From assembly GCA_016788315.1 (NCBI GenBank), contig JAEUSG010000213.1:1-49281 (forward strand): DNA of 49,281 bases, written 5' to 3'. The notes under the pieces were generated by a model. That model was not told the origin of the DNA. It searched no databases and saw only the letters and a program-made list of their open reading frames with translations. The DNA comes from Fibrobacterota bacterium (GTDB taxonomy: Bacteria; Fibrobacterota; OXYB2-FULL-49-7; JAEUSG01). Below are positions 227-13,342 of this stretch, one piece after another. Numbering within the stretch: position 1 is the stretch's first letter; the number at the start of each line of letters is the position of its first letter. Both the position numbers and the translations under genes were made by a program.

Positions 227-3133
227 CTACCTGGACAAAATAGTTTTAGCTATCAATACCTTTTTATCTGCCTGCAACCTGTAAATGTAGATGCCTGCAG
301 CTACTGATCGGTCTGAGGCATCTTTACCATTCCAGGAGAAACGGTGCAGGCCTGGAGCTAAATCGCTTTCGCCAAGAGTTCTGACAACTCTTCCGCGAAC
401 ATCACAGACGTCAAGTTTAACGCGGGCACTGCCAGGTAAATTTACATTGATATTAGTGACTCCTGAGAACGGCATCGGACTCGAAGCAATAGAAAAAAGT
501 GGTGTTCTCCAGTACATGTTTTCCTGAACTGCAGTTGAAAGAGCAGTTAGTCCGGGAAGATTATCTGCACTGTAAACCATTCTTACTTTAGCAATACGGT
601 AGTTCATGTAGTCGCTGACATATATGTAATCTTCGGAGGCAACGGCAGAAGTGGGCCATGCCATTGGAATGTCGGTGCTTGAAATTACAGCCTGCCCTGG
701 CAGACCGGGAAGACTGCCGCGTGAATCGATATTGCCGTACTTACCAAACTGATTAATGACATTTCCATCGTTATCGGCAACCGTAACCTGACATGTTATT
801 GCACTTGGCACAATAAGGCGACCGTATGCATCAACATCAAAACGTGGAGAACGGCATTGACATCCACCTAATCTATCCATGCTGAATGGTGCTAGTGGCA
901 GATCGTAAACTTTATCAGCATTGAATACAGCTGATGTTGTTACCGCACCGGAATCTCCTGCCTTGAATCTGATAATGCTTCCATTTCCCCATTTAAAGCC
1001 AGTGTCGCTGGAAAACCAAGTCGGGGCGGAATACGTTGCAGATCTGATGCCTGCACCAACATAAATGTTGCCATTTCGATCAAGTTTTACACCACCGCTC
1101 ATTTGAGGAAGTGTTCCAATTTTAACATTACCATAAGAAGTTATAGTGGAGCCGGTGTCAGGGTATATGCCGACATAACTTGTCATACGATCAGCATTTA
1201 CACCCATAATTGCCACGTTATTATCGTTAGCAACAGCAATTCCTCTAGCTCCTGTGCACGGTGCAAAGCGGGCATATACTGGGCCTGTTAGCTGGTTTTT
1301 ACCGGGTGTATTTGAAAAATTAACAGGCTCAAGTGAATCTCCAAGAGTGTAACGGGTTACAGGAGCAGAAAAATTTGTGCCTTCATAAACATACAATTCA
1401 TTCTTCGGACTAATTGTCCAATCAAGACCATAAAGGCGTTTTTTTGCTTTTGTTATTATGTTAGATAGTCTTGGTGAATTCCAATTTGTTAATCTATATA
1501 AACCATACCAGGAATCAGAGACATATAAATTGTCATTTCTTGTGTCTACCTGTAAACGGTCAGGTGTAGGGTTTTCACTTCCAAGATCATTGTTTGCCAG
1601 ACTTATTGCCTTCATGTCCTTTGTCAGTGAGAGAGTGGAGCCGTTGTCTTTGTAAATCCTAATGCCTTGACCCCATACGCCGACCCAGATAGAAATTTCA
1701 CCATCAACGTCATTTACAGCCATACTCGAAGTCGCACTTCTTCCCGAACGACCTATGTTTGCTGAGGCGACATTAATAGTGCATAACGGTGTCGCACCAG
1801 TTGAGAAGGAGGAAAATTTAATCAGTTTGACAGTATTTAAACACGCACCAGCCCATGCAGCCTGTGATTGCGTCAAAACATAAATAGAGCCGTTTCTTCC
1901 GCAAATTTGAACACGGTGTGGATGAACGATAGGGAGTGCTCCTAAAAACTTTGCGTTTGTGTCATAAACACCTACTTGTTTATTTAGACGATCACAGACA
2001 TAAATGCGATTTGAGGAATCCATTGCTGTCCCGTGTAGTGCTGAGTACAAGCTTCCCCCGCCCAGCTTTGCCAGTCTGTCGGTATTTGTTTTAGGCACAC
2101 TGTCAATTGCAAGCCATGTCGACGCATTTCCGGTTACGGTGTCTATTATAAACACTTTGCCATCTCTATAAAAGTTAGTATCTGGTACAATTTGAGTGGA
2201 TGTTCCGAGTGTTCCTGTATAGTTAAAAATTCCAGTCAAAAGAAATTTTCCATTTTTAAGTGGAAGTAAATTGGCTTCACCTCCAACAGAATATGCGGGA
2301 TTGTATGTTGCGAAAGCGGGTGTTTTAAAAAGTGTCTTTGATGTTCCGTTACCGGTGCATGAGCCATCAGTACCTATTGACATTATGTCTAAGTCACCAA
2401 AAACCAGCTTTCCTTCAGCATTAATGTAATGGAGTTTGCTGTTGTATCGGTGATTCATGTAGCCAAGTTTTGTTCGTGTAAACATCGGAAGAGATGTATT
2501 TGTGCTCTTTGGTATAAAACTTCCGTCTGGATTATTAATTACACCCCATCCAGCAACTTCATTTTGACTTAGATTGGATGGCATAGGAAAGAGTGTTTTG
2601 ACATAATTACCCGATTTGTCAAATTTGCGCACGCTCAGAAATGTTTGTCCGTAATGTTCATGCCAGAAGTTCGCTGGTGCACCAGCAACATATACTGAAC
2701 CATCACTTCCAGCAACTATACCGCTTATATATTGAGAATATGCGCCTATTGAATAAGGTTCACCGCCGATGAGTGAGACCAATTGAGTTGTCATTCCGGC
2801 ACGGACACGCGCTTTAAGATTTGCTTCGGGTACACTAACCGGTTCTCCACGATCGTTAGTGCCATCCCAAGCCAATGTTTGAGTAAATGTGTTTTTTGTA
2901 AATGGAGCCGGTGCTTTGGCACCAAGAACACCTGCAGCCAGGTGGCGAACAACAGTTGAGTCAGCAATATTGACTATTGATATAGCTACATCAGCTTCGC
3001 CGCTCACGGTGAATGTTATTTCCCAGGAATTTACAGCCTTTTTTGTCAGCGTCGGACCACTTGTTATTGTCACGGCTGCCATATTCAATTGGAAAAGTAA
3101 AAAGGCTGATATAAGTACTGTTTTTATGAACAT
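227..3133 (-). CDS. Secreted NHL/beta-propeller protein with FlgD-like domains and C-terminal sorting tail
   Basis: A 968-residue exported protein. Residues 1-19 form a signal peptide (MFIKTVLISAFLLFQLNMA). Residues about 20-115 form a FlgD-like Ig domain, with VVRHLAAGVLG followed by LAWDGTNDRG. Residues about 125-860 hold repeated NHL-type propeller strands (GSVYVAG, NRIYVCD, GNIYVGAG, DYIYVSDYMNYRIAKV). The last ~85 residues form a beta-sandwich sorting tail ending in AAGIYIYRL and ILSR. Its likely role is cell-surface binding or scaffolding; no catalytic motif was seen. A strong ribosome site, AGGAGG, lies about 10 nt before the start. It lies 33 bp after the peptidase gene and is probably its operon partner. 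It is a clear paralogue of the protein at 16332-19091, sharing the N-terminal VRHLAAG block and the CxxxRFDVDxYGRL propeller motif. Substrate unknown. Confidence 0.75.
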   Translation of the reverse strand: MFIKTVLISAFLLFQLNMAAVTITSGPTLTKKAVNSWEITFTVSGEADVAISIVNIADSTVVRHLAAGVLGAKAPAPFTKNTFTQTLAWDGTNDRGEPVSVPEANLKARVRAGMTTQLVSLIGGEPYSIGAYSQYISGIVAGSDGSVYVAGAPANFWHEHYGQTFLSVRKFDKSGNYVKTLFPMPSNLSQNEVAGWGVINNPDGSFIPKSTNTSLPMFTRTKLGYMNHRYNSKLHYINAEGKLVFGDLDIMSIGTDGSCTGNGTSKTLFKTPAFATYNPAYSVGGEANLLPLKNGKFLLTGIFNYTGTLGTSTQIVPDTNFYRDGKVFIIDTVTGNASTWLAIDSVPKTNTDRLAKLGGGSLYSALHGTAMDSSNRIYVCDRLNKQVGVYDTNAKFLGALPIVHPHRVQICGRNGSIYVLTQSQAAWAGACLNTVKLIKFSSFSTGATPLCTINVASANIGRSGRSATSSMAVNDVDGEISIWVGVWGQGIRIYKDNGSTLSLTKDMKAISLANNDLGSENPTPDRLQVDTRNDNLYVSDSWYGLYRLTNWNSPRLSNIITKAKKRLYGLDWTISPKNELYVYEGTNFSAPVTRYTLGDSLEPVNFSNTPGKNQLTGPVYARFAPCTGARGIAVANDNNVAIMGVNADRMTSYVGIYPDTGSTITSYGNVKIGTLPQMSGGVKLDRNGNIYVGAGIRSATYSAPTWFSSDTGFKWGNGSIIRFKAGDSGAVTTSAVFNADKVYDLPLAPFSMDRLGGCQCRSPRFDVDAYGRLIVPSAITCQVTVADNDGNVINQFGKYGNIDSRGSLPGLPGQAVISSTDIPMAWPTSAVASEDYIYVSDYMNYRIAKVRMVYSADNLPGLTALSTAVQENMYWRTPLFSIASSPMPFSGVTNINVNLPGSARVKLDVCDVRGRVVRTLGESDLAPGLHRFSWNGKDASDRSVAAGIYIYRLQADKKVLIAKTILSR

Positions 3134-3166
3134 GATGTTGTCCTCCTATTATTATATCTCTGTAAA

Positions 3167-5254
3167 TTATCTGCTTAAGATGCCCTTAATCTCTGTCACT
3201 ATCCGACCCCTTCTGATTTTGAATATGTAAATTCCGGCTGAAGCATTCTTGCAGTTCCAAACTGTAGACCTTGTACCAGGCGTGAAACTTTGTCTGTGTA
3301 TGAGACGGCCGTCAATAGCAAAAACCTCTAAAGAAACCTTCTCATCTGAAGCTACCTGTGTACCGAGATCAATAATTGTTCTAGGTGTGAATGGATTCGG
3401 CAGGATAGATGCTGATGCTGTTTTAAGAGCTGTTTTTTTATGAAGCTCTGTTCCTGTTAACCCTTTATATGCAATAACGCCGGAATCAGTCTTGATAATT
3501 ACAGAAGCGTAATCTCGTGCTTTGTAGTGATCTACAGCCTCAATTCTTACGGTACATATTTTTGCTTCAGTATAAGTTTTCGAAAAAGTAAATGAAGTTC
3601 CTGATGAATCTGGATCTGTTTTGCCTCTGTTGTAGCTTGTACCATACCAGTCATATCCTGATATTCCATCATCTGCGTCTGTTGCTGTAGCTTTGAATTT
3701 CCAGCTCATTCCATTTACACGTTCTGCTGTAATTTCACTTATGATCGGCTTGATATTTGCCGGTGTCATATTCGGCTTCAGACTTAGATCTCCGTGAAAA
3801 TTTGCTGACCATATTGCACCATTTGCACGAAGCCAGGCACGGCCGAACGAAGAGCCGGATCCAAGATATTTTCTTGCTTTATATCTTGGAGCGGCATCTG
3901 ATGACGAATCTTCTAGATGGAAACCCAGCCCGACATAATCCGAAGCTGAAACCGCCAGAACACAACCGCTGTTCTTAGATAGGAGAAACCTGTTTGTAAT
4001 AGTACCGAAAACACCTGTATGGCAGTTTTCTCCAAAAATAAAGCGAGTTGATACTATTGTATTGCTGACGTCATTATTTCTGAATACCCATATTTCATTA
4101 CCCGCTCCATCGTAAAGTGATCTATACATATCTCCATTGCCATGTGTATTAGCTGTGAAAAATTCTCCACCGAGTTTGAATTCATAATCAATTGGATTGG
4201 TTTTATCGCTGATACCATGCTTTCTTGTATCAGGCCAGATTTCATTAAGTTTATTGTAGTCCATTGGCGCTGATTTGGAATACATGTTATAATAGAATGC
4301 TGTTCGTGGTAATCGGCTTGCTCCTGTCCTGAAGTCATGGTTATTCTGCAGCATCCTCTTGACAAGAGTCACTTCGCTTCCTATGTCTGAAGTTAACTCA
4401 TTTCCCCAGCCGCTTAATGCATTCATGTACGATATCCAGATGTTTGTAAAGCCCGGTGTAAAGTGATAACCGGAATAACCGCCGAATCCAACTAAATGAC
4501 CAATGATAGAATCTGTTGAAAACTCAGGCTCCCATTTTGTCATACACCAGAAAGCACTTGTCCTGTTTATAACCTGATCTCCAGGGCCGCCGAAATAGGG
4601 GAGCTTTCCGATCATAATTGATCCAGTAAGCATGTTGTCTCTTTTGTTGTATTCTGCCGTCAAAGTATCCCAAAGCTGTTTAGCATGAGTAACATTCCAT
4701 GGCGCAGGTGTATTGAATGGACATATTCTAGCTTTGTAGCCTTCATTTTCCAGATCGCTCTTAAGACGGTTAACCTCTGTCTGTATAGAAGTAAGGAGAG
4801 TCTGGTTTACAACAATAAGAACGGTCATGTTTCCAGGTTCGGAAGGGGTAACACGAACTTCGCAAATAACATTTTCAGTGGTTGTAAGATTTGTAGTAAC
4901 CCTATATGTAAATGTATCTCGTCCAGTAAAGCCTTCTGCTGGTATGTAAGTGAAACCAGGATAAAACTTTGGGGCATTAGCCATTCTGGATTTCCCCCCC
5001 GAGGTACCTATGCGGAGATAAAATGAATTTGTATCGAACCAGTTGTTAACCACACGAACAGTTCCATGTTTTGCGGCTGATACCTCAATCGTTGCAGAAG
5101 TTACGGTTGTATCCCACTTTTTCAAAAAAGGACAGAAGGTAAGTGTGTCCCCAGATTGAACAGAAACTTTCATTGGTATAGCTGTTAAACCATTTATCGT
5201 TCCGATACAAAACATAATAATGGTAATTGTGAATATTTTTTGATGGATTTTCAT
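3167..5254 (-). CDS. Secreted C25-like (clan CD, caspase-fold) peptidase with sorting tail
   Basis: A 695-residue exported protein. It has a signal peptide (about 1-22), a cadherin-like/Big-type beta domain (about 30-135, FTYIPAEGFTGRDTFTYRV), and a caspase-like fold starting at MTVLIVVNQ (143-150). A candidate catalytic pair follows: His371 in ANTHGNGDMY and Cys411 in IFGENCHTG, the H-G then strand-x-x-C layout of gingipain-type C25 peptidases. A PKD-like domain spans about 510-600, and the tail carries PNPFTP then AGIYIFKI...ILSR. In the family such enzymes are extracellular cysteine peptidases, some of which process type IX cargo; that role here is inference. It is first in a minus-strand operon behind a sigma-54 promoter (5307-5324), with AGGGGACTTAA before the ATG. 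The spacing between His and Cys is plausible, but the domain match rests on motifs only. Confidence 0.65.
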   Translation of the reverse strand: MKIHQKIFTITIIMFCIGTINGLTAIPMKVSVQSGDTLTFCPFLKKWDTTVTSATIEVSAAKHGTVRVVNNWFDTNSFYLRIGTSGGKSRMANAPKFYPGFTYIPAEGFTGRDTFTYRVTTNLTTTENVICEVRVTPSEPGNMTVLIVVNQTLLTSIQTEVNRLKSDLENEGYKARICPFNTPAPWNVTHAKQLWDTLTAEYNKRDNMLTGSIMIGKLPYFGGPGDQVINRTSAFWCMTKWEPEFSTDSIIGHLVGFGGYSGYHFTPGFTNIWISYMNALSGWGNELTSDIGSEVTLVKRMLQNNHDFRTGASRLPRTAFYYNMYSKSAPMDYNKLNEIWPDTRKHGISDKTNPIDYEFKLGGEFFTANTHGNGDMYRSLYDGAGNEIWVFRNNDVSNTIVSTRFIFGENCHTGVFGTITNRFLLSKNSGCVLAVSASDYVGLGFHLEDSSSDAAPRYKARKYLGSGSSFGRAWLRANGAIWSANFHGDLSLKPNMTPANIKPIISEITAERVNGMSWKFKATATDADDGISGYDWYGTSYNRGKTDPDSSGTSFTFSKTYTEAKICTVRIEAVDHYKARDYASVIIKTDSGVIAYKGLTGTELHKKTALKTASASILPNPFTPRTIIDLGTQVASDEKVSLEVFAIDGRLIHRQSFTPGTRSTVWNCKNASAGIYIFKIRRGRIVTEIKGILSR

Positions 5255-5306
5255 TTAAGTCCCCTGCTTGTAAGTGGATTAATAGTTGAATTGAATAAAC
5301 AGAATT

Positions 5307-5324
5307 AGGCAATTAATATGCCAA
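5307..5324 (-). promoter_or_regulatory. Sigma-54 (-24/-12) promoter for the C25 peptidase / NHL operon
   Basis: On the minus strand the sequence is TTGGCATATTAATTGCCT. It has GG, exactly ten bases, then GC, and fits TGGCA...TTGC at every core position. The expected transcription start is near 5297, leaving a 5' leader of about 40 nt before the ATG at 5254. It lies between the peptidase gene and a divergently transcribed sigma-54 activator, the usual arrangement for a dedicated activator. Confidence 0.7.
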
Positions 5325-5381
5325 CATAAAAAGGGCTATATTTATGAAATTAGGCCTATTTGTATAAAAAAAGGGCAGATC

Positions 5382-5399
5382 TGAACAGTAGTGAACAGT
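5382..5399. promoter_or_regulatory. Candidate activator-binding site: tandem TGAACAGT
   Basis: TGAACAGT occurs at 5382-5389 and again at 5392-5399, one helical turn apart. It lies about 60-75 bp upstream of the -24 element of the divergent sigma-54 promoter, where an upstream activating sequence could sit. The adjacent activator at 5441 is the natural candidate to bind it. The site also argues against a TTG start at 5360 for that activator, which would place the repeats inside the coding sequence. Confidence 0.4.
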
Positions 5400-5440
5400 G
5401 CAAATTGGCGTTTTTCATCGTTTTTAGTTATGTTGAATAC

Positions 5441-8400
5441 ATGTCGCTGCCCAAATCATTACTTAAAGAATTCCTGAATACTGTCTCTGCTGACCAATAT
5501 TTGTATGTGACGCATGATGAATCAGGAAACATTGATGATTTCATAAATACTCCCAAAACCCCTATTCTTTTCTCCTTACTCAAACAGCTTCAACTTGGAA
5601 CTAAACTCTCAGACTTTTTCATTTGGGAAAATGCTTTCAGAAAGGGCAGCTCGCTTTTTTACAGGCAGCGAAAGGCTATGTCCATAACAGATCCTTTTTT
5701 CCGGTTTTATACTGATTTAACACAGATAATAATGGCATCCAAACCGATTGAGTCAGGTCTATATTTAGGACGAATCGCGCAGCTTGAATTTTATCCAGTA
5801 ATAAAGTCATCATCGCTTAATTCAATTCTAATGGTTGACAATGAGACCGACGCGATACGTGGTTTTTCAGATTCTTTTTATAGTCTTTTCTCTTCAAAAT
5901 ATGCAAATCCTATTGATATGATTGGGAAGCATTTGCGTGAATTTATTACTCCATCTCCTGCTGAGTTCCAAAAAGCTCAACAAACATTGATATCTCCGTC
6001 TAAGGAAAATGGATATCAAAAAATCCTGGATATTGATTTTAAAAATGCATCAGCTGCAGATTATTTGATTCCATACGGAGGAGATTTTACCTCATTAACA
6101 AATGGCTGCAAATGGACAAATAACGGCAATGCTGCATGTTACGCTCTGCTGAAAAACAGCATTCGTACAAAGGACACAGATTTTATTCTCACGTTAGAGT
6201 ATGATAATCTAGGCCAAAGCGGACTGTTTTTCATACTTGGAGCAAACAGGGAATTTAGGCTCGAAGCTCCGGATGATAAGGGTTACTCCGCCGGAGATGT
6301 TATGGATATTGAAACGCGAAACACGACTGTAATAAAGAGGAATGGTGATATTCTTTATGCTTCTCGTTTTACGACAATTATAGCAGGACGGCATGTTTTT
6401 GACTTCTGTAAAACCGGTGAAACAATAAGTGTTTACAAAAATAATGAACTCACGGCTTCATATGTTGATACCGATTTTCTGCATGCTGCAAAAGGACAAT
6501 TAGTATTGGCGCTCAGGCCTGGAAAAAGTTGCTTGTTAAGTAAGATGGTTCTAAAAACGAAAGTAGTTGAGTCTGCTGCCAAAAACATAAGTAAGAGATT
6601 GATGTGCAGAACTATTGAAAAACCAACACGTTACTTTGTTCTCGACCGTTTTTACAGTAGTATGTTGGGCCAAACTGACTTTTTGCATATTTCAGGATTT
6701 CTTCTCTCCAGTGTTACAGAAATACAGGAACAGGCGAAAGAGTTCGGCTTGAAGTATAAGTCTCTTCTTGCAGGTACAACACCCTCATCGGCAACATCAT
6801 TTATTTGCAACAGCTCTCCAATGAATCACGTGCGCGATACTGCAGTGCTGGCGGCAAAATCAGATGCAACTGTTTTGATTGAAGGACCTACCGGAGCAGG
6901 TAAAGAGGTATTAGCGAGATTTATACACGAAAGCAGCAAAAGAAAAGATGGCCCATTTGTAAAGGTTGACTGCGCAACAGTGCCTCAGTCTCTAATAGAA
7001 AGTCATTTGTTTGGGCATGAGAAGGGTGCATTCACCGGTGCTATAGGGCAAAACATAGGATTGTTTGAGGCTGCACAAAATGGAACTATATTTCTTGACG
7101 AAATTGGTAATTTGAATCTTGAAGTGCAAGCAAAGCTATTACAATTTTTCAATGATTTTACAATTACACGGGTTGGAAGCAATAGTCCCATCCGTTTGGA
7201 TATCCGAATGGTAGCAGCATCAAATGTTAAATTGAAAACTCTGGTTAAGAACGGGCTTTTCCGTGAGGATCTTTATTACAGACTCAATGTAATATCAATT
7301 GTCATACCTCCGCTTAAAGAACGTAAAGATGATATCCTTCCGCTTAGCCGCCATTTTCTGAACAAGTTTACCGGCGAACAGGGCAAGGATATTGTTGCTT
7401 TTACGGAAGAGGCGGAAAAGAGACTGCTTGCTCACGATTGGCCGGGTAATGTCCGTGAACTGGCTAACGTTGTTCAGAGGGCGGTAATTTTTTGCAACGA
7501 TAGCGAAGTTCCGGAAAAACTCATTCAGATGCCTGATATAGTATCAAGTGATGTTGCGGAGAATACAAGGCCTAAGAAAAGCCGACGTCTTACTAAACAT
7601 ACGTTGCCCGAAACCGTATTAGTGTCATTGCGTAAACATGATGGCAATGCAACTCTTGTAGCAAAGGAACTTAAAATGAGTCGAACAACACTATATAAAT
7701 TTCTTGAACAGAATAAGATGAAACTGGATTCATTTAGAAAGGGCTTCAATTTATTTCTAGTATTTTTTGCGTTAGCAGTAGCATCTTTGCAAGCTCAGGA
7801 AAGTGTAAAGAAGATGGCGCTTCCAGCAGGATACACTCGCTTGACCTATTCGGAAGAAACTTTCAGCGGCTGGGTTCAGTCACTGAAACTGAAGGCGGAT
7901 AAAAAAATACGTGTTTATGATGGTTCCTTAATTTCTGAAGGATATTTTAACAAAGCAGCAGTAGTGGAAATGCCGCTTTTGTTTAAGGTGGATATTGAGC
8001 AATGTGCAGATTACTGCATGAGATTATGGGCAGAATACCACAAGACACAGAACTCTCTTAATAAGCTTTATTTGTACACGTATTCCGGAGAAAAAAAGCT
8101 GTTCTCAGCTTCTGGAAAAACATTGAATCAATTCTTAAAAACCGCTTTCTCAAATACAAATTCATTTTCGCTGAAGCAGGGATGTAAGCAAGTTGTAAAG
8201 GACAGTCTTCGGCCAGGCGATATGTTTGTCCAGAATGGCAACGGAGGCATAGGTCACGTATCCATGATTGTTGATATGTGCGAGGCGAAAAATAGTTCCG
8301 GCAAACTTTACCGTTTGGGTTTCAGTTTTATGCCCGCGCAGGAATTCCATATCGAAGGAGCTGGAAGCGGGTATGGCGTTGAAGGATGGTTTACTTTTGA

Positions 8401-8461
8401 AGGTGCTATGAAATATCTGGAAGAAACCTTTGTAATAAAACCTGTTTTACGTAGATTCTAA
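5441..8461 (+). CDS. Sigma-54 activator (PAS + jelly-roll + AAA+ + HTH) fused in frame to a DUF4846 domain
   Basis: 1006 residues from the ATG at 5441, chosen because the paralogue at 19222 aligns from here; an in-frame TTG at 5360 would add 27 residues. Domains in order: N-terminal region; PAS-like (about 125-170); a jelly-roll/lectin-like beta domain (about 205-375, ending [11 protein letters not shown]); a linker; an AAA+ sigma-54 activator core with Walker A GPTGAGKE (482-489), sigma-contact loop GAFTGA (529-534), Walker B FLDE (551-554) and WPGNVREL (667-674); and a Fis-type HTH (about 730-758). With no stop codon the frame runs on into [18 protein letters not shown], a classic signal peptide, and a DUF4846 domain (about 790-1006, with [30 protein letters not shown]). 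The natural start of a separate DUF4846 protein is ATG 7718, but no good ribosome site precedes it. Either a true fusion or a lost stop codon. The M23 gene follows 2 bp later. Confidence 0.8.
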
Positions 8462-9165: not shown

Positions 9166-9212
9166 TAGATGTTAAGTTATATTTTAATAATTGAAAACAA
9201 AAAGAGGTGAAT

Positions 9213-9962
9213 ATGTCCATAACACTAACTGATTTCCCAAAATTACATTGTCCGTTTATCCGTCAGACTTTTAAAGTAAACAAGGATGATTTTAAACGAA
9301 TAGGCAATAAGTTCGGCTTACGGGAACCTGAAGCATATCTCGCAGTTGACAGAATAAATCCAGGCTACGAGTGGGTCTTCGACGATCCAGATACATTTGC
9401 TGTTGAAAAGCTCAATGGAACAAATGTAAAGCTTATGACAGAAAATGGAAGGCTTGTCGCTCTGCAAAACAGAAAAAATATCATAGATCCGCTTCAGATT
9501 CTCCATGGAAAGACCTTTATAATAGAGGGAATCTTTATGTCCATTGCAAAGGGTTATGTTCACGAAAATGGCGAACAGGCTGGCGAACTAATCGGGCCCA
9601 AATTGCAGGGTAATCCCTATAAAATGGAAACACATGAATGGTATCCGTTTGAGAAATCACTGAGCGCACTCCGCTATAAGTCGTTTGATTCACATCCAAG
9701 GGGTTTTGACAATTGGGATTCCTGGTTTAAAGATCATCTTTTCTCTCTATATTTTCAGAAGCGTGCCAGTAAGATTGGTCTAACTGATAAGGTTTTTGCC
9801 GAAGGTATAATACTATATAATATGCGCCGAAAGAGCGAGGGGAAAAGTTGGATGGCAAAACTTAGGCGAGACATGTTCCCCTGGTTCTACGAAGGAATTC
9901 AGATCTTGGATTATGACAAAAAAGGGCGTGATGAAATTGAAGAACAGGAGCACTTTGAGTAA
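9213..9962 (+). CDS. RNA-ligase-like nucleotidyltransferase
   Basis: 249 residues from the ATG at 9213, preceded by AGAGGTG; an in-frame GTG at 9207 overlaps that site. Motif I is VEKLNGTNV with the presumed AMP-accepting Lys66. A GKTFIIEGIF segment fits motif III (Glu105), AEGIILYNM fits motif IV (Glu197), and GKSWMAKLRR fits the two lysines of motif V. These are the ordered motifs of the covalent nucleotidyltransferase superfamily (RNA/DNA ligases and capping enzymes); the short size and EKLxGTNV suit RNA ligases of the Rnl/DUF type. The biological substrate is unknown; RNA repair is possible. The last 38 bp are repeated after the next gene (11174-11211), showing that the DUF4143 gene separated it from the AraC gene. 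Confidence 0.65.
   Translation: MSITLTDFPKLHCPFIRQTFKVNKDDFKRIGNKFGLREPEAYLAVDRINPGYEWVFDDPDTFAVEKLNGTNVKLMTENGRLVALQNRKNIIDPLQILHGKTFIIEGIFMSIAKGYVHENGEQAGELIGPKLQGNPYKMETHEWYPFEKSLSALRYKSFDSHPRGFDNWDSWFKDHLFSLYFQKRASKIGLTDKVFAEGIILYNMRRKSEGKSWMAKLRRDMFPWFYEGIQILDYDKKGRDEIEEQEHFE
9925..9962 (+). repeat. 38-bp direct repeat, left copy (3' end of ligase-like gene)
   Basis: Matches 11174-11211 at 35 of 38 bases; the three differences are single substitutions. This copy encodes the last codons and stop of the ligase-like gene (DEIEEQEHFE then TAA). The DUF4143 gene lies wholly between the two copies, 1249 bp apart. Confidence 0.85.
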
Positions 9963-10016
9963 TTTAATATTTAATATTGAATTACCACACGTCTTTGATT
10001 ATATTAGAGTTACAAT

Positions 10017-11171
10017 ATGTTTATACGGCAAATCAGCGACTATGTACTAAAAATTTCAAGCCAATACCCAGTTATTACTTTGACTGGTCCAAGGCAATCG
10101 GGAAAGACTACTCTTGTCAAAACCATCTTTCCACAAAAGCCATATGTATCCCTTGAAAACCCAGATGTAAGAGCTCATGCAGAGGATGATCCCAGGGGAT
10201 TTTTGAAAAAATATGAAAATGGTGCAATCTTTGATGAAATACAAAGAGCACCAAATATTCCTTCGTATCTTCAATCAATGGTTGATGAAAATAGGGAGCC
10301 AGGACGGTTTGTACTTACTGGAAGCCAGCAATTTTCACTTTCTGCACAAATCAGTCAGTCTTTGGCAGGTCGGACTGCAATGGTTCGTCTTTTACCACTT
10401 TCGTTAGCTGAACTATCAAGCCAAAACAGCACACTTGATCAGCTTCTTTTTTCAGGTATGTATCCGGCGATTCATGACAAGAAATTGGATGTTTCAGATT
10501 ATTACGCAAACTATCTCGAGACATATGTCGAACGAGATCTGAGACAATTAGCCAATGTAGGTGATTTGCATCTGTTTCACAAATTTTTAGGTTGTTTGGC
10601 TGCGAGAGTAGGTTCGCTTTTAAATATGAGCAATTTGTCAAATGATGTTGGCGTCAGTATGCCGACAATTCAGAGATGGATATCTATTTTAGAGGCGGGT
10701 TACATAGTTTTTTTGCTGCAGCCATTTCATAAAAATATATCTAAAAGATTAATCAAAACGCCTAAAGTTTACTTTTATGATACTGGTCTTTTGTCATATC
10801 TTCTAAAAATTTCAACACATGATGCTTTGGCTACACATCAGATGAGGGGGCCTGTTTTTGAAAATTTTGTTATTTTGGAGATTATGAAAAACAGTCTCAA
10901 CATTGGGAAACGACCGCAACTATTATTCTTCAGAACACAGTCCGGTGATGAAGTCGATTTGATAGTGGAAGAAGAGAAAGGATTGACTGCCGTAGAAATT
11001 AAGTCTTCTCTTACCTGGGACAAATCATTTCTGAAAGGGTTAAACGTGTTTTCGGATCTTTTTGGTCAAGAAATAAATAGAAAAGTAGTTGTATTTGCGG
11101 GTGAAGAAAATTTTGTTATAGCAGACAGTTCCGTGATGTCATGGGATCAAATCAGATTTGAGTCAAAATAA
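10017..11171 (+). CDS. AAA ATPase with DUF4143 domain
   Basis: 384 residues. Walker A is GPRQSGKTT (24-32), Walker B is AIFDEIQ with Asp73/Glu74, and a sensor-like VLTGSQQF segment follows. The middle has the SLAELSS...YLETYVERD block typical of DUF4143 proteins. The C-terminus carries RTQSGDEVDLIV...AVEIKSS, a PD-(D/E)XK-like remnant usual in this family. The family is widespread and often found as isolated, recently acquired single genes; its function is not established. It has its own 54-bp upstream region and no strong ribosome site. The flanking 38-bp direct repeats indicate that this gene was inserted between the ligase-like and AraC genes. Confidence 0.85.
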   Translation: MFIRQISDYVLKISSQYPVITLTGPRQSGKTTLVKTIFPQKPYVSLENPDVRAHAEDDPRGFLKKYENGAIFDEIQRAPNIPSYLQSMVDENREPGRFVLTGSQQFSLSAQISQSLAGRTAMVRLLPLSLAELSSQNSTLDQLLFSGMYPAIHDKKLDVSDYYANYLETYVERDLRQLANVGDLHLFHKFLGCLAARVGSLLNMSNLSNDVGVSMPTIQRWISILEAGYIVFLLQPFHKNISKRLIKTPKVYFYDTGLLSYLLKISTHDALATHQMRGPVFENFVILEIMKNSLNIGKRPQLLFFRTQSGDEVDLIVEEEKGLTAVEIKSSLTWDKSFLKGLNVFSDLFGQEINRKVVVFAGEENFVIADSSVMSWDQIRFESK

Positions 11172-11173
11172 TT

Positions 11174-11211
11174 GGCCTGATGAAATTGAAGAGCAGGAGC
11201 ACTTTGAATAA
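11174..11211 (+). repeat. 38-bp direct repeat, right copy (start of AraC gene)
   Basis: Second copy of 9925-9962 (35/38 identical). In the ligase frame it still reads DEIEEQEHFE then TAA. In the other frame it supplies the ATG (11180) of the AraC-type gene, as well as an AGGAG followed by an alternative TTG start (11204). The repeat therefore preserved both the end of one gene and the start of the next. Confidence 0.85.
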
Positions 11212-13342
11212 AAAGACTTTTTTGATTTTATTACTATTGACCTCTTTTGTAGTTTCGTCAGAAGTCGGGCCATTTATAGAAACTTTTGAATATGGTAAAA
11301 CTTACACTGCTTCCAGTATTAATATTGGAGATACAACGATCCTTCTGACAAACAGCGAAACAATGAACGAGTGGCCGGATTCTTTTGGGTTGTCACTTGT
11401 TGAGAATACTGATATCGGTCGACGGGATTATTTTTCATACAAAGTTAAGAGGAAGAACCAACTTTTCGGTGTTACAGGAATTGATTTCAATCAAAGGGCA
11501 GAATCTGAGATTGTTTGCAATGGACACAAGAAATGGTACGAGCCATCAAAGATACTTAAAGGAACAAACGATACAAATTCGGCAATCTTCGGGAGTTTTG
11601 GTTTCAGAAGTAATCCAGATCAATATTATAAACTCGAAAAAAAGATTGATAACGATAGCTCAATTTATGTCAGATTTTACATAAGCATAGATTCATTACT
11701 TGCAAACAATAAAAATGAAATTACCAAAACACTAATACATGCCCTTTCCCCAGGAGGGTTTCTGAGAATCTATCTGGAAACAGATACAGAAAAGAAAAGC
11801 ACAGGACTACTTTTCGCAATTGAAGATGATATTCTTAAGAAGAAAGAGAGTGAAAAGGTTCAATTTCAAAAACAGCTGCTTATTCATAATGTCTACTGTG
11901 TTGAGTATCTGCTGAAGCTGGATAATATAAAGGAAAGCTATACATGTACGGCATGGATTAATGGCAGTTTACTATTTGAAACTTCAGCTCCCTATTATAT
12001 TAAAATGAAGAAACATCATTTTTACGCCGTTCTTTTCGGAGCTCTGTCTTATGAACCTTATGGAAACAGCATATTCAGAATTGACGATATAGCATATTCA
12101 ACTGCAAGAACCGGACCTTTGTCATTGAATCCAGAAATGAGTCTTGTAAAGAATGAACGGGGTAACAGGTCGATTATAATGAATAATGAAGACAGCAGCT
12201 ACGAATCCATCCAGTTGCAGATTAGCGACAAGGGTGAATGGCGCTTCCCCTTACTGACTCAGAAAAGCGAAGCTCCAATCTTCCGCATCAGCCTTAGATA
12301 TTTCCCTTTTGATTCTGATTCTATGTATTACCGTGTCAAGGCAAAGCAGAAAAACTGTGATTGGAGCCACTGGAGTAAGCCATTGAAGTTCGATAATTTT
12401 AACAAAGGCCGATTGACAACTCCGGTTATAAATGACATAATAATTTCTGAAGAAAACTTAATGGAACCGGAAACGCTCCTTATCTCCAATAAATGGTATG
12501 ATATAACAGTCAATGTTGACGATTCAGCTGGTTTTGAAAATGTCTATTACTGTCACCTTCTCTTTCATCACGAATCACAGCCTGTTTTTAATGTTACAGA
12601 CAGAGGAGCCCCCTTCGATCCGGAATTAAATTACATGGTCAGCTATTCCAAATCGAATGTTAACGGCAAGGATGTCATATATACTCTCGAGGAGCCAGGG
12701 AGTGAAATCACCCGGCAGGTCTGTTCCAGTTGCAGCTTATATGTCGACTGCACCAAACCGTGCGCAGTTTCCGATTCAGTCAACAAAACCCTTAAAACCA
12801 ACTTTCGTCATCTGCAGGAAGCACGCGAGGGGGTCTGGATTCTTGACGGTGTTTTGTTTAATAAGCAGGAGAATTACTCAAAATCATTCCGAAAAAGATT
12901 TTACGTTAAAAGAGCAGATGTTGAGAAGAGGCATGGTTCACCTCTTTGGCTGATTCTGCCAATTGTACTTGTTTCAGGCATAATCTTCTGGACGAGGAAG
13001 AGGAAACGGATAATTGTACAGGATCCCAGAATTTCAGCTGCAGTTAAGTTTATAAAAGAGAACCTGTCGAAAAAGATAAGCGTCGAAATGGTAGCCGAGC
13101 ATATCCGAATGAGTGAGGGATGGCTAATCACAAATTTTAAAAAAGAGACTGGTACTGGAATTCCAAACTTTGTTAATGAGCTGAGGGTTGAAAAAGCTAA
13201 GGAACTGATCGAAAAGGGTGAGAGGAATATTGCAGAGGTTGGCTATATGGCTGGTTTTAGCGATCCTGCCTATTTTAACAGAATTTTCAAGGCTGTTACC
13301 GGAAAATCACCAGGCGAATATCTTAAATCTATCAAGACTTAA
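11180..13342 (+). CDS. Membrane-anchored AraC-type regulator with lectin-like ectodomain
   Basis: 720 residues. An N-terminal export segment (about 10-27), a large extracytoplasmic part, one transmembrane helix (about 587-605, LWLILPIVLVSGIIFW) followed by basic RKRKR, then a cytoplasmic AraC HTH (about 620-717: ISVEMVAEHIRMSEGWL, IAEVGYMAGFSDPAYFNRIF, TGKSPGEYLK). Residues about 135-310 resemble a concanavalin A/LamG-like sandwich (YVRFYIS, CTAWINGSLLF, FRIDDIAYS); residues about 330-410 look like a fibronectin-type strand set. It most likely signals an outside ligand directly to DNA, without a kinase. ATG 11180 lacks a ribosome site; TTG 11204, with AGGAG just before it, would give a cleaner signal peptide. 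It precedes a rhamnogalacturonan-lyase-like gene in the same direction. Ligand inferred to be a glycan. Confidence 0.75.
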   Translation: MKLKSRSTLNKKTFLILLLLTSFVVSSEVGPFIETFEYGKTYTASSINIGDTTILLTNSETMNEWPDSFGLSLVENTDIGRRDYFSYKVKRKNQLFGVTGIDFNQRAESEIVCNGHKKWYEPSKILKGTNDTNSAIFGSFGFRSNPDQYYKLEKKIDNDSSIYVRFYISIDSLLANNKNEITKTLIHALSPGGFLRIYLETDTEKKSTGLLFAIEDDILKKKESEKVQFQKQLLIHNVYCVEYLLKLDNIKESYTCTAWINGSLLFETSAPYYIKMKKHHFYAVLFGALSYEPYGNSIFRIDDIAYSTARTGPLSLNPEMSLVKNERGNRSIIMNNEDSSYESIQLQISDKGEWRFPLLTQKSEAPIFRISLRYFPFDSDSMYYRVKAKQKNCDWSHWSKPLKFDNFNKGRLTTPVINDIIISEENLMEPETLLISNKWYDITVNVDDSAGFENVYYCHLLFHHESQPVFNVTDRGAPFDPELNYMVSYSKSNVNGKDVIYTLEEPGSEITRQVCSSCSLYVDCTKPCAVSDSVNKTLKTNFRHLQEAREGVWILDGVLFNKQENYSKSFRKRFYVKRADVEKRHGSPLWLILPIVLVSGIIFWTRKRKRIIVQDPRISAAVKFIKENLSKKISVEMVAEHIRMSEGWLITNFKKETGTGIPNFVNELRVEKAKELIEKGERNIAEVGYMAGFSDPAYFNRIFKAVTGKSPGEYLKSIKT

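What the first reader, a model, noticed from the sequence alone, without database searches (positions are those of the whole stretch)
9925..11211. A single DUF4143 ATPase gene inserted with a 38-bp duplication that keeps both neighbours intact
Two 38-bp copies (35/38 identical) lie on either side of the DUF4143 gene. The left one completes the ligase-like gene and the right one supplies the start of the AraC gene. Without the insert the two genes would overlap. No transposase or inverted termini are present, so the route of insertion is unclear.
Basis: partly seen in the sequence, partly recalled or inferred. Interest (0 to 1): 0.6.

Follow-up and report, generated by a model that had tools for sequence, protein, structure and literature searches.

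The report
Single defence-type gene inserted after ligase
A lone ATPase-nuclease gene (a very common candidate anti-phage defence gene) has been slipped between two overlapping genes in a Fibrobacterota bacterium, leaving a 38-base copy of the first gene's end behind it; many such genes elsewhere carry the same kind of scar, so the scar hints at how these solitary genes spread.

Summary
A 38-nt direct repeat (35/38) flanks one AAA_14+DUF4143 gene, is far above chance, and occurs nowhere else in this 5.55-Mb genome. The left copy is the ligase-like gene's 3' end. The right copy carries the ribosome site and start of the AraC-type gene, so both neighbours stay readable.

The scar recurs. With one fixed geometry, 15 of 224 DUF4143 genes have flanking repeats, against 3 of 440 other genes in the same loci (p=1.7e-5) and 2 of 83 Fic genes (difference not significant). 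In the clean cases the repeat is usually the 3' end of a neighbouring gene, ending at or near its stop codon. Copies differ mainly at third codon positions (8/5/28, p=5e-6), so they look like two alleles rather than a fresh target duplication. Empty sites exist in relatives, but none was found for this exact site.

DUF4143 proteins match PADLOC family PDC-S01, a candidate single-gene defence system with an ATPase plus PD-(D/E)XK nuclease.

Best reading: single-gene acquisition by one-sided homologous recombination with illegitimate joining on the other side. Homing by the gene's own nuclease is not excluded.

The parts
9207..9962 (+). Ligase-like gene (gene X), intact; its last 38 nt are the left repeat copy
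   Evidence: ORF; homologues 69-70% identical in G055 and G057 with the same type of C-terminus; no Pfam match
9925..9962 (+). Left repeat copy = ligase-like 3' end including TAA
9963..11173 (+). Inserted unit, 1211 nt: 54-nt leader, DUF4143 gene, 2 nt after the stop
   Evidence: GC 36.6% versus 41.3% for the window
10017..11171 (+). AAA_14 + DUF4143 gene, 384 aa; matches PADLOC candidate defence family PDC-S01
   Evidence: Pfam; PADLOC 1e-104; conserved GxRQxGKT, DE, ExD...ExK; model pLDDT 86.8 with best fold hits Cdn1/Can2 nucleases and the 2qen ATPase
11174..11211 (+). Right repeat copy: orphan ligase-like 3' end; carries AGGAG and the start of the AraC-type gene
11204..13342 (+). AraC-type regulator gene; TTG start at 11204 preceded by AGGAG (alternative ATG at 11180)
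   Evidence: HTH_18 / HTH_AraC; start reading inferred from sequence

Best explanation
A solitary DUF4143 (PDC-S01 candidate defence) gene entered between a ligase-like gene and an overlapping AraC-type gene. Most likely incoming DNA carried a related ligase allele followed by the DUF4143 gene. It paired with the resident ligase gene by homology and copied in the donor 3' end, stop codon and DUF4143 gene. The far side was then joined without homology inside the resident ligase 3' end. This is homology-facilitated illegitimate recombination (HFIR), or an equivalent one-sided recombination. It gives ligase (donor-type end) - DUF4143 - orphan resident ligase end - AraC start, with both neighbours intact. 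Shown: the anatomy, the uniqueness of the repeat, family-wide recurrence, allele-like divergence of the copies in other cases, and filled and empty sites in relatives. Inferred: the event at this exact site, its direction, and the recombination route.
For: Repeat real and unique. Same anatomy at 3' ends of unrelated genes: AraC (L057), flavodoxin (L210), uvrA-like (L146), asnS (L158), phage terminase (L120), SUMF1-like (L023), phage tail protein (L108), FISUMP gene (trp locus). Enrichment over neighbouring genes 15/224 versus 3/440, p=1.7e-5. Copy differences by codon position 8/5/28, p=5e-6; 13 of 19 at third positions, p=0.002, without the two possible tandem-paralogue cases. relB case L078: left copy 94% and right copy 83% identical to a sister species' relB, two alleles of different origin; G108 has a single relB. 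Empty site G064 beside filled L210. HFIR is an established process: PMC3240628 (abstract); model figure and repeat statistics in PMC2884548; orphan immunity arrays in PMC5361080.
Against: No donor locus (ligase allele next to DUF4143) was found. HFIR does not predict that the orphan begins within about 25 nt of the DUF4143 stop codon in most co-directional cases, nor that homology between different loci of one DUF4143 subfamily ends at the stop codon. Locus B shows an exact insertion with no duplication. In the trp locus two species have a complete FISUMP gene where others have only its 3' end, so some orphans may be deletion remnants. In the window only 3 sites differ.
Confidence: 0.5

Rival explanations
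1. DUF4143 genes are free-standing homing-type elements: their PD-(D/E)XK nuclease cuts near the 3' end of the neighbouring gene in an empty genome, and repair from the donor copies in the donor 3' end plus the DUF4143 gene; imperfect repair on the far side leaves the orphan.
For: Nuclease-type ExD...ExK residues invariant in 11 divergent members; fold hits to Cdn1/Can2 nucleases; higher scar frequency than neighbour genes; a 99%-identical gene in six Fibrobacter species; phage copies beside terminase and tail genes, where homing nuclease genes also cluster (PMC10448857); gene-exact right border.
Against: Fic genes are not significantly different (2/83, p=0.17), and an LRR gene shows a similar scar. 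No DNA cleavage by this family was found reported. The family is catalogued as a defence candidate (PMC12988326).
Confidence: 0.2
2. A transposase-like activity in trans inserted the gene and made a genuine 38-bp target-site duplication; the copies later drifted.
For: Copies directly flank the unit; identical copies exist in L146 and L158 (24/24) and near-identical in L210 (65/66).
Against: No terminal inverted repeats or shared termini. Repeat length varies from 24 to 180 nt. Third-position bias of differences. Homology ends near stop codons. No duplication at locus B.
Confidence: 0.13
3. A tandem second copy of the ligase gene once lay downstream; the DUF4143 gene replaced or deleted its body and only its 3' end remains.
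For: In the Fibrobacter trp locus G010 and G113 have a complete FISUMP gene after the DUF4143 gene where G006, G042, G117 and G040 have only its 3' end.
Against: Needs repeated independent losses that stop within the last 24-66 nt of unrelated genes; no ligase paralogue in this genome (one match).
Confidence: 0.1
4. Site-specific integration into gene 3' ends by a recombinase in trans, the element carrying an attP-like replacement 3' end (as integrative elements do) or an attC site.
For: Restored 3' ends with synonymous changes; L116 has attC-like repeats on both sides of a DUF4143 gene (read by eye).
Against: No recombinase gene in the unit; different targets carry unrelated sequences; no common core.
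Confidence: 0.07

Closest known systems
Homology-facilitated illegitimate recombination (PMC3240628; de Vries and Wackernagel 2002, cited within PMC2884548)
   Same: Foreign DNA enters through homology on one side and an illegitimate join on the other; both alleles of the anchor end can persist
   Different: Here the unit is one gene with a right border near its stop codon, and the anchor ends at or near the stop codon of the neighbouring gene
Small variable segments / microdiversity loci (PMC2884548)
   Same: Short single-gene differences; 10-18% are flanked by direct repeats and illegitimate recombination is invoked
   Different: That paper does not tie the repeats to one gene family or, in the passages read, to gene 3' ends
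V. cholerae T6SS orphan immunity arrays (PMC5361080)
   Same: A new module is inserted next to a conserved anchor while the displaced 3' remnant is kept downstream
   Different: Kept parts there are functional immunity genes; here the remnant is a short orphan that happens to start the next gene
Free-standing homing endonuclease genes in phages (PMC10448857)
   Same: Solitary nuclease genes next to conserved genes, spreading between genomes
   Different: DUF4143 proteins are AAA ATPase fusions with no shown cleavage specificity
PDC-S01 (PADLOC; PMC12988326)
   Same: Same protein family: ATPase fused to a PD-(D/E)XK-type domain, single gene, very widespread
   Different: Described as a defence candidate; its mode of insertion was not addressed in the passages read

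Membership tests
PDC-S01 / AAA_14-DUF4143 protein family | AAA_14 and DUF4143 domains in one protein, PADLOC profile match | tested here: met
   Pfam 7e-29 and 2e-49; PADLOC 1e-104
PDC-S01 / AAA_14-DUF4143 protein family | Anti-phage activity | not testable with these tools
   Candidate status only (PMC12988326)
Insertion by HFIR | Homologous anchor on one side, illegitimate join on the other | tested here: inconclusive
   Allele-like divergence in related cases; no donor found for the window
Insertion by HFIR | Pre-insertion state present in relatives | tested here: inconclusive
   Found for L210/G064 and Fibrobacter locus B; not found for the window
DNA transposon with target-site duplication | Terminal inverted repeats or conserved termini | tested here: not met
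DNA transposon with target-site duplication | Constant duplication length | tested here: not met
   24 to 180 nt among the cases, none at locus B
Homing endonuclease gene | Nuclease domain | tested here: met
   Conserved ExD...ExK and fold similarity; low whole-chain TM-scores, so by motif and partial fold only
Homing endonuclease gene | Cuts the empty allele and is copied into it | not testable with these tools
   needs biochemistry or crosses
Integron gene cassette | attC site bounding the gene | tested here: not met
   No hairpin-type site at the window borders by reading; seen only by eye in L116

The most novel reading that the evidence does not exclude
DUF4143/PDC-S01 genes are autonomous single-gene selfish elements: their ATPase-nuclease directs insertion next to gene 3' ends in a homing-like way, leaving the target gene intact with a displaced orphan end. 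One of the commonest candidate defence genes of prokaryotes would then owe its spread to its own mobility.
Probability: 0.18. Interest if true: 0.85.

Novelty: new variant of a known kind. Interest (0 to 1): 0.45.

Why it matters
PDC-S01 was reported as the fourth most common defence system across prokaryotes (PMC12988326), yet it is a lone gene with no known mobility machinery. The scars and the Fibrobacter filled/empty sites make its route of spread testable: they give unit borders (leader of about 30-180 nt; right end at or near the stop codon), named empty targets, and two competing predictions (passive HFIR versus nuclease-driven homing).

Tried and rejected
Transposon with long target duplication: rejected as the general account (no shared termini, variable length, third-position bias). 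Repeat as an interspersed element: rejected (unique in the genome). The DUF4143-only claim was weakened by a Fic control; L277's Fic flank turned out to be a multi-copy 65-aa gene, and the apparent control genes in L314/L319 proved to be DUF4143 genes themselves. L062, L190 and L160 were set aside as interspersed or palindromic repeats, L144 and L151 as possible tandem-paralogue contexts. A protein-level search for older orphans added none. Ligase and AraC homologues in the phylum gave no empty site for the window. A motif CCCACTATT at the Fibrobacter hotspot looked like an element end but is a native palindromic repeat found at many sites.

Full report
Observation. The two copies lie at 9925-9962 and 11174-11211, 35 of 38 identical, on either side of a 384-aa AAA_14+DUF4143 gene. 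The score of 30.5 compares with a maximum of 17 in 1000 shuffles, and the sequence occurs only at these two places in the 5.55-Mb assembly. The left copy is the ligase-like C-terminus DEIEEQEHFE-stop; two homologues at 69-70% identity end in the same way. The right copy supplies AGGAG (11195-11199) and the TTG at 11204 (or the ATG at 11180) of the AraC-type gene. The inserted unit is 1211 nt: a 54-nt leader, the gene, and 2 nt. Its GC is 36.6% against 41.3% for the window.

It is not a one-off. This genome has 15 DUF4143 matches, and a second one (L004) also has a flanking repeat, 35/36. A survey across Fibrobacterota, named genomes of many phyla and viral contigs used one fixed geometry: left copy within 250 nt of the start, right copy from -60 to +120 nt of the stop, score at least 20. 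It gives 15 of 224 DUF4143 genes, 3 of 440 other genes in the same loci (p=1.7e-5), and 2 of 83 Fic genes (DUF4143 versus Fic p=0.17). This geometry was fixed after a first look at much of the same data, so the p-value is descriptive rather than a blind test. Some of the 15 are other things: an interspersed repeat in L062, a palindrome in L190, and attC-like repeats in L116. The excess over ordinary neighbours is solid; specificity to DUF4143 relative to other solitary accessory genes is not shown.

What the repeats are. In the clean cases the repeat is the 3' end of a neighbouring gene, ending at or within a few bases of its stop codon: ligase-like (window), AraC (L057), terminase (L120), uvrA-like C-terminus (L146), asparaginyl-type tRNA synthetase (L158), flavodoxin (L210), and on the opposite strand a SUMF1-like protein (L023) and a phage tail protein (L108) (the uvrA and SUMF1 names are read from C-termini, not from a family search). 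The gene's real end stays on one side and an orphan fragment sits on the other. Differences between copies fall 8/5/28 on codon positions 1/2/3 (p=5e-6), with 25 synonymous and 12 nonsynonymous codons. Without the two cases that may be tandem paralogues it is 13 of 19 at third positions (p=0.002). The copies therefore diverged as coding sequence, which fits two alleles of one gene better than a duplication that then drifted. In L078 the left relB copy is 94% and the right copy 83% identical to a sister species' relB, and G108 has a single relB. For the window itself only three sites differ, two synonymous and one not, so this inference is borrowed from the other cases.

Empty sites. G064, in the same genus as G031, has the flavodoxin gene followed directly by the SAHH gene; G031 (L210) has the DUF4143 gene and a 66-nt orphan between them, with flanks 85-86% identical. 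In Fibrobacter one DUF4143 subfamily (83-99% identical, 16 species) sits at several places. Between these places homology ends within 0-2 nt of the stop codon on the right and about 100-120 nt upstream of the start on the left. At locus B several species have an empty site and others the gene, with no target duplication. At the trp locus some species have an orphan FISUMP 3' end after the gene and others a complete FISUMP gene. Insertion is real, then, but a duplication is an occasional by-product. No empty site was found for the window's own pair.

Mechanism. The best-supported route is one-sided homology: a donor allele of the upstream gene pairs with the resident gene, the donor end and the DUF4143 gene are copied in, and the far side is joined illegitimately inside the resident 3' end. 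This explains the intact neighbours, the stop-codon limit of homology, the synonymous differences and the lack of termini. HFIR is established in competent bacteria and in E. coli conjugation (PMC3240628, abstract) and has been invoked for small variable segments (PMC2884548) and for V. cholerae orphan immunity arrays (PMC5361080). It does not by itself explain why the orphan usually starts within about 25 nt of the DUF4143 stop codon. That gene-exact border is the main reason to keep nuclease-driven homing open.

The protein. It matches PADLOC PDC-S01 at 1e-104. PMC12988326 describes PDC-S01 as an ATPase fused to a PD-(D/E)XK-type domain and as the fourth most common defence system, with experimental validation pending for most such candidates. 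Walker and ExD...ExK residues are invariant in 11 divergent members. The predicted structure (pLDDT 86.8) finds Cdn1/Can2 nucleases and the archaeal ATPase 2qen, at low whole-chain TM-scores. An anti-phage role is a candidate reading, not shown.

Verdict. Observation confirmed. Single-gene insertion supported. A transposition-type target duplication is not supported family-wide. Mechanism most likely one-sided recombination, with homing by the gene's own nuclease as the interesting alternative.

Noticed in passing
L116 (viral contig), about 3807-3940 and 5174-5307: A DUF4143 gene is bounded on both sides by about 134-nt repeats that read like integron attC sites (GTTAGGC...GTTAGAC), suggesting a DUF4143 gene cassette.
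   Followed up: no
L120 (viral contig) 2188-6927: Phage terminase gene, DUF4143 gene, orphan terminase 3' end, then a second DUF4143 gene: two successive insertions behind the same phage gene.
   Followed up: partly
L433-L438 (Fibrobacter trp locus): A 99%-identical DUF4143 gene next to trp genes with a shared FISUMP 3'-end border; some species carry an orphan and others a whole FISUMP gene after it.
   Followed up: partly
L501-L512 (Fibrobacter variable region): A hotspot of swapped single genes separated by a palindromic repeat (CACTATGCG...CGCATAGTG) that recurs at many intergenic sites.
   Followed up: partly
window 9535-9550 and 11514-11529: A 16-nt inverted repeat (94%) about 390 and 300 nt outside the two repeat copies, inside the ligase-like and AraC genes; probably chance.
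   Followed up: no
L113 2350-3804 (viral contig): A leucine-rich-repeat gene beside a DUF4143 gene is itself flanked by copies of a phage gene's 3' end.
   Followed up: partly
L004 424-810 and 2094-2207: The scar around this second G000 DUF4143 gene is composite: the end of a secretion-type gene plus 36 nt, with about 275 nt present only in the left copy.
   Followed up: partly
L373-L400 (Fibrobacter): A 65-aa zinc-ribbon-like gene (..VFAGGKLRKK) occurs at many places beside accessory genes such as Fic.
   Followed up: no
window 5360-8461: A 1033-aa ORF looks like a sigma-54 activator reading on into a secreted-protein sequence; it may be two genes fused.
   Followed up: no
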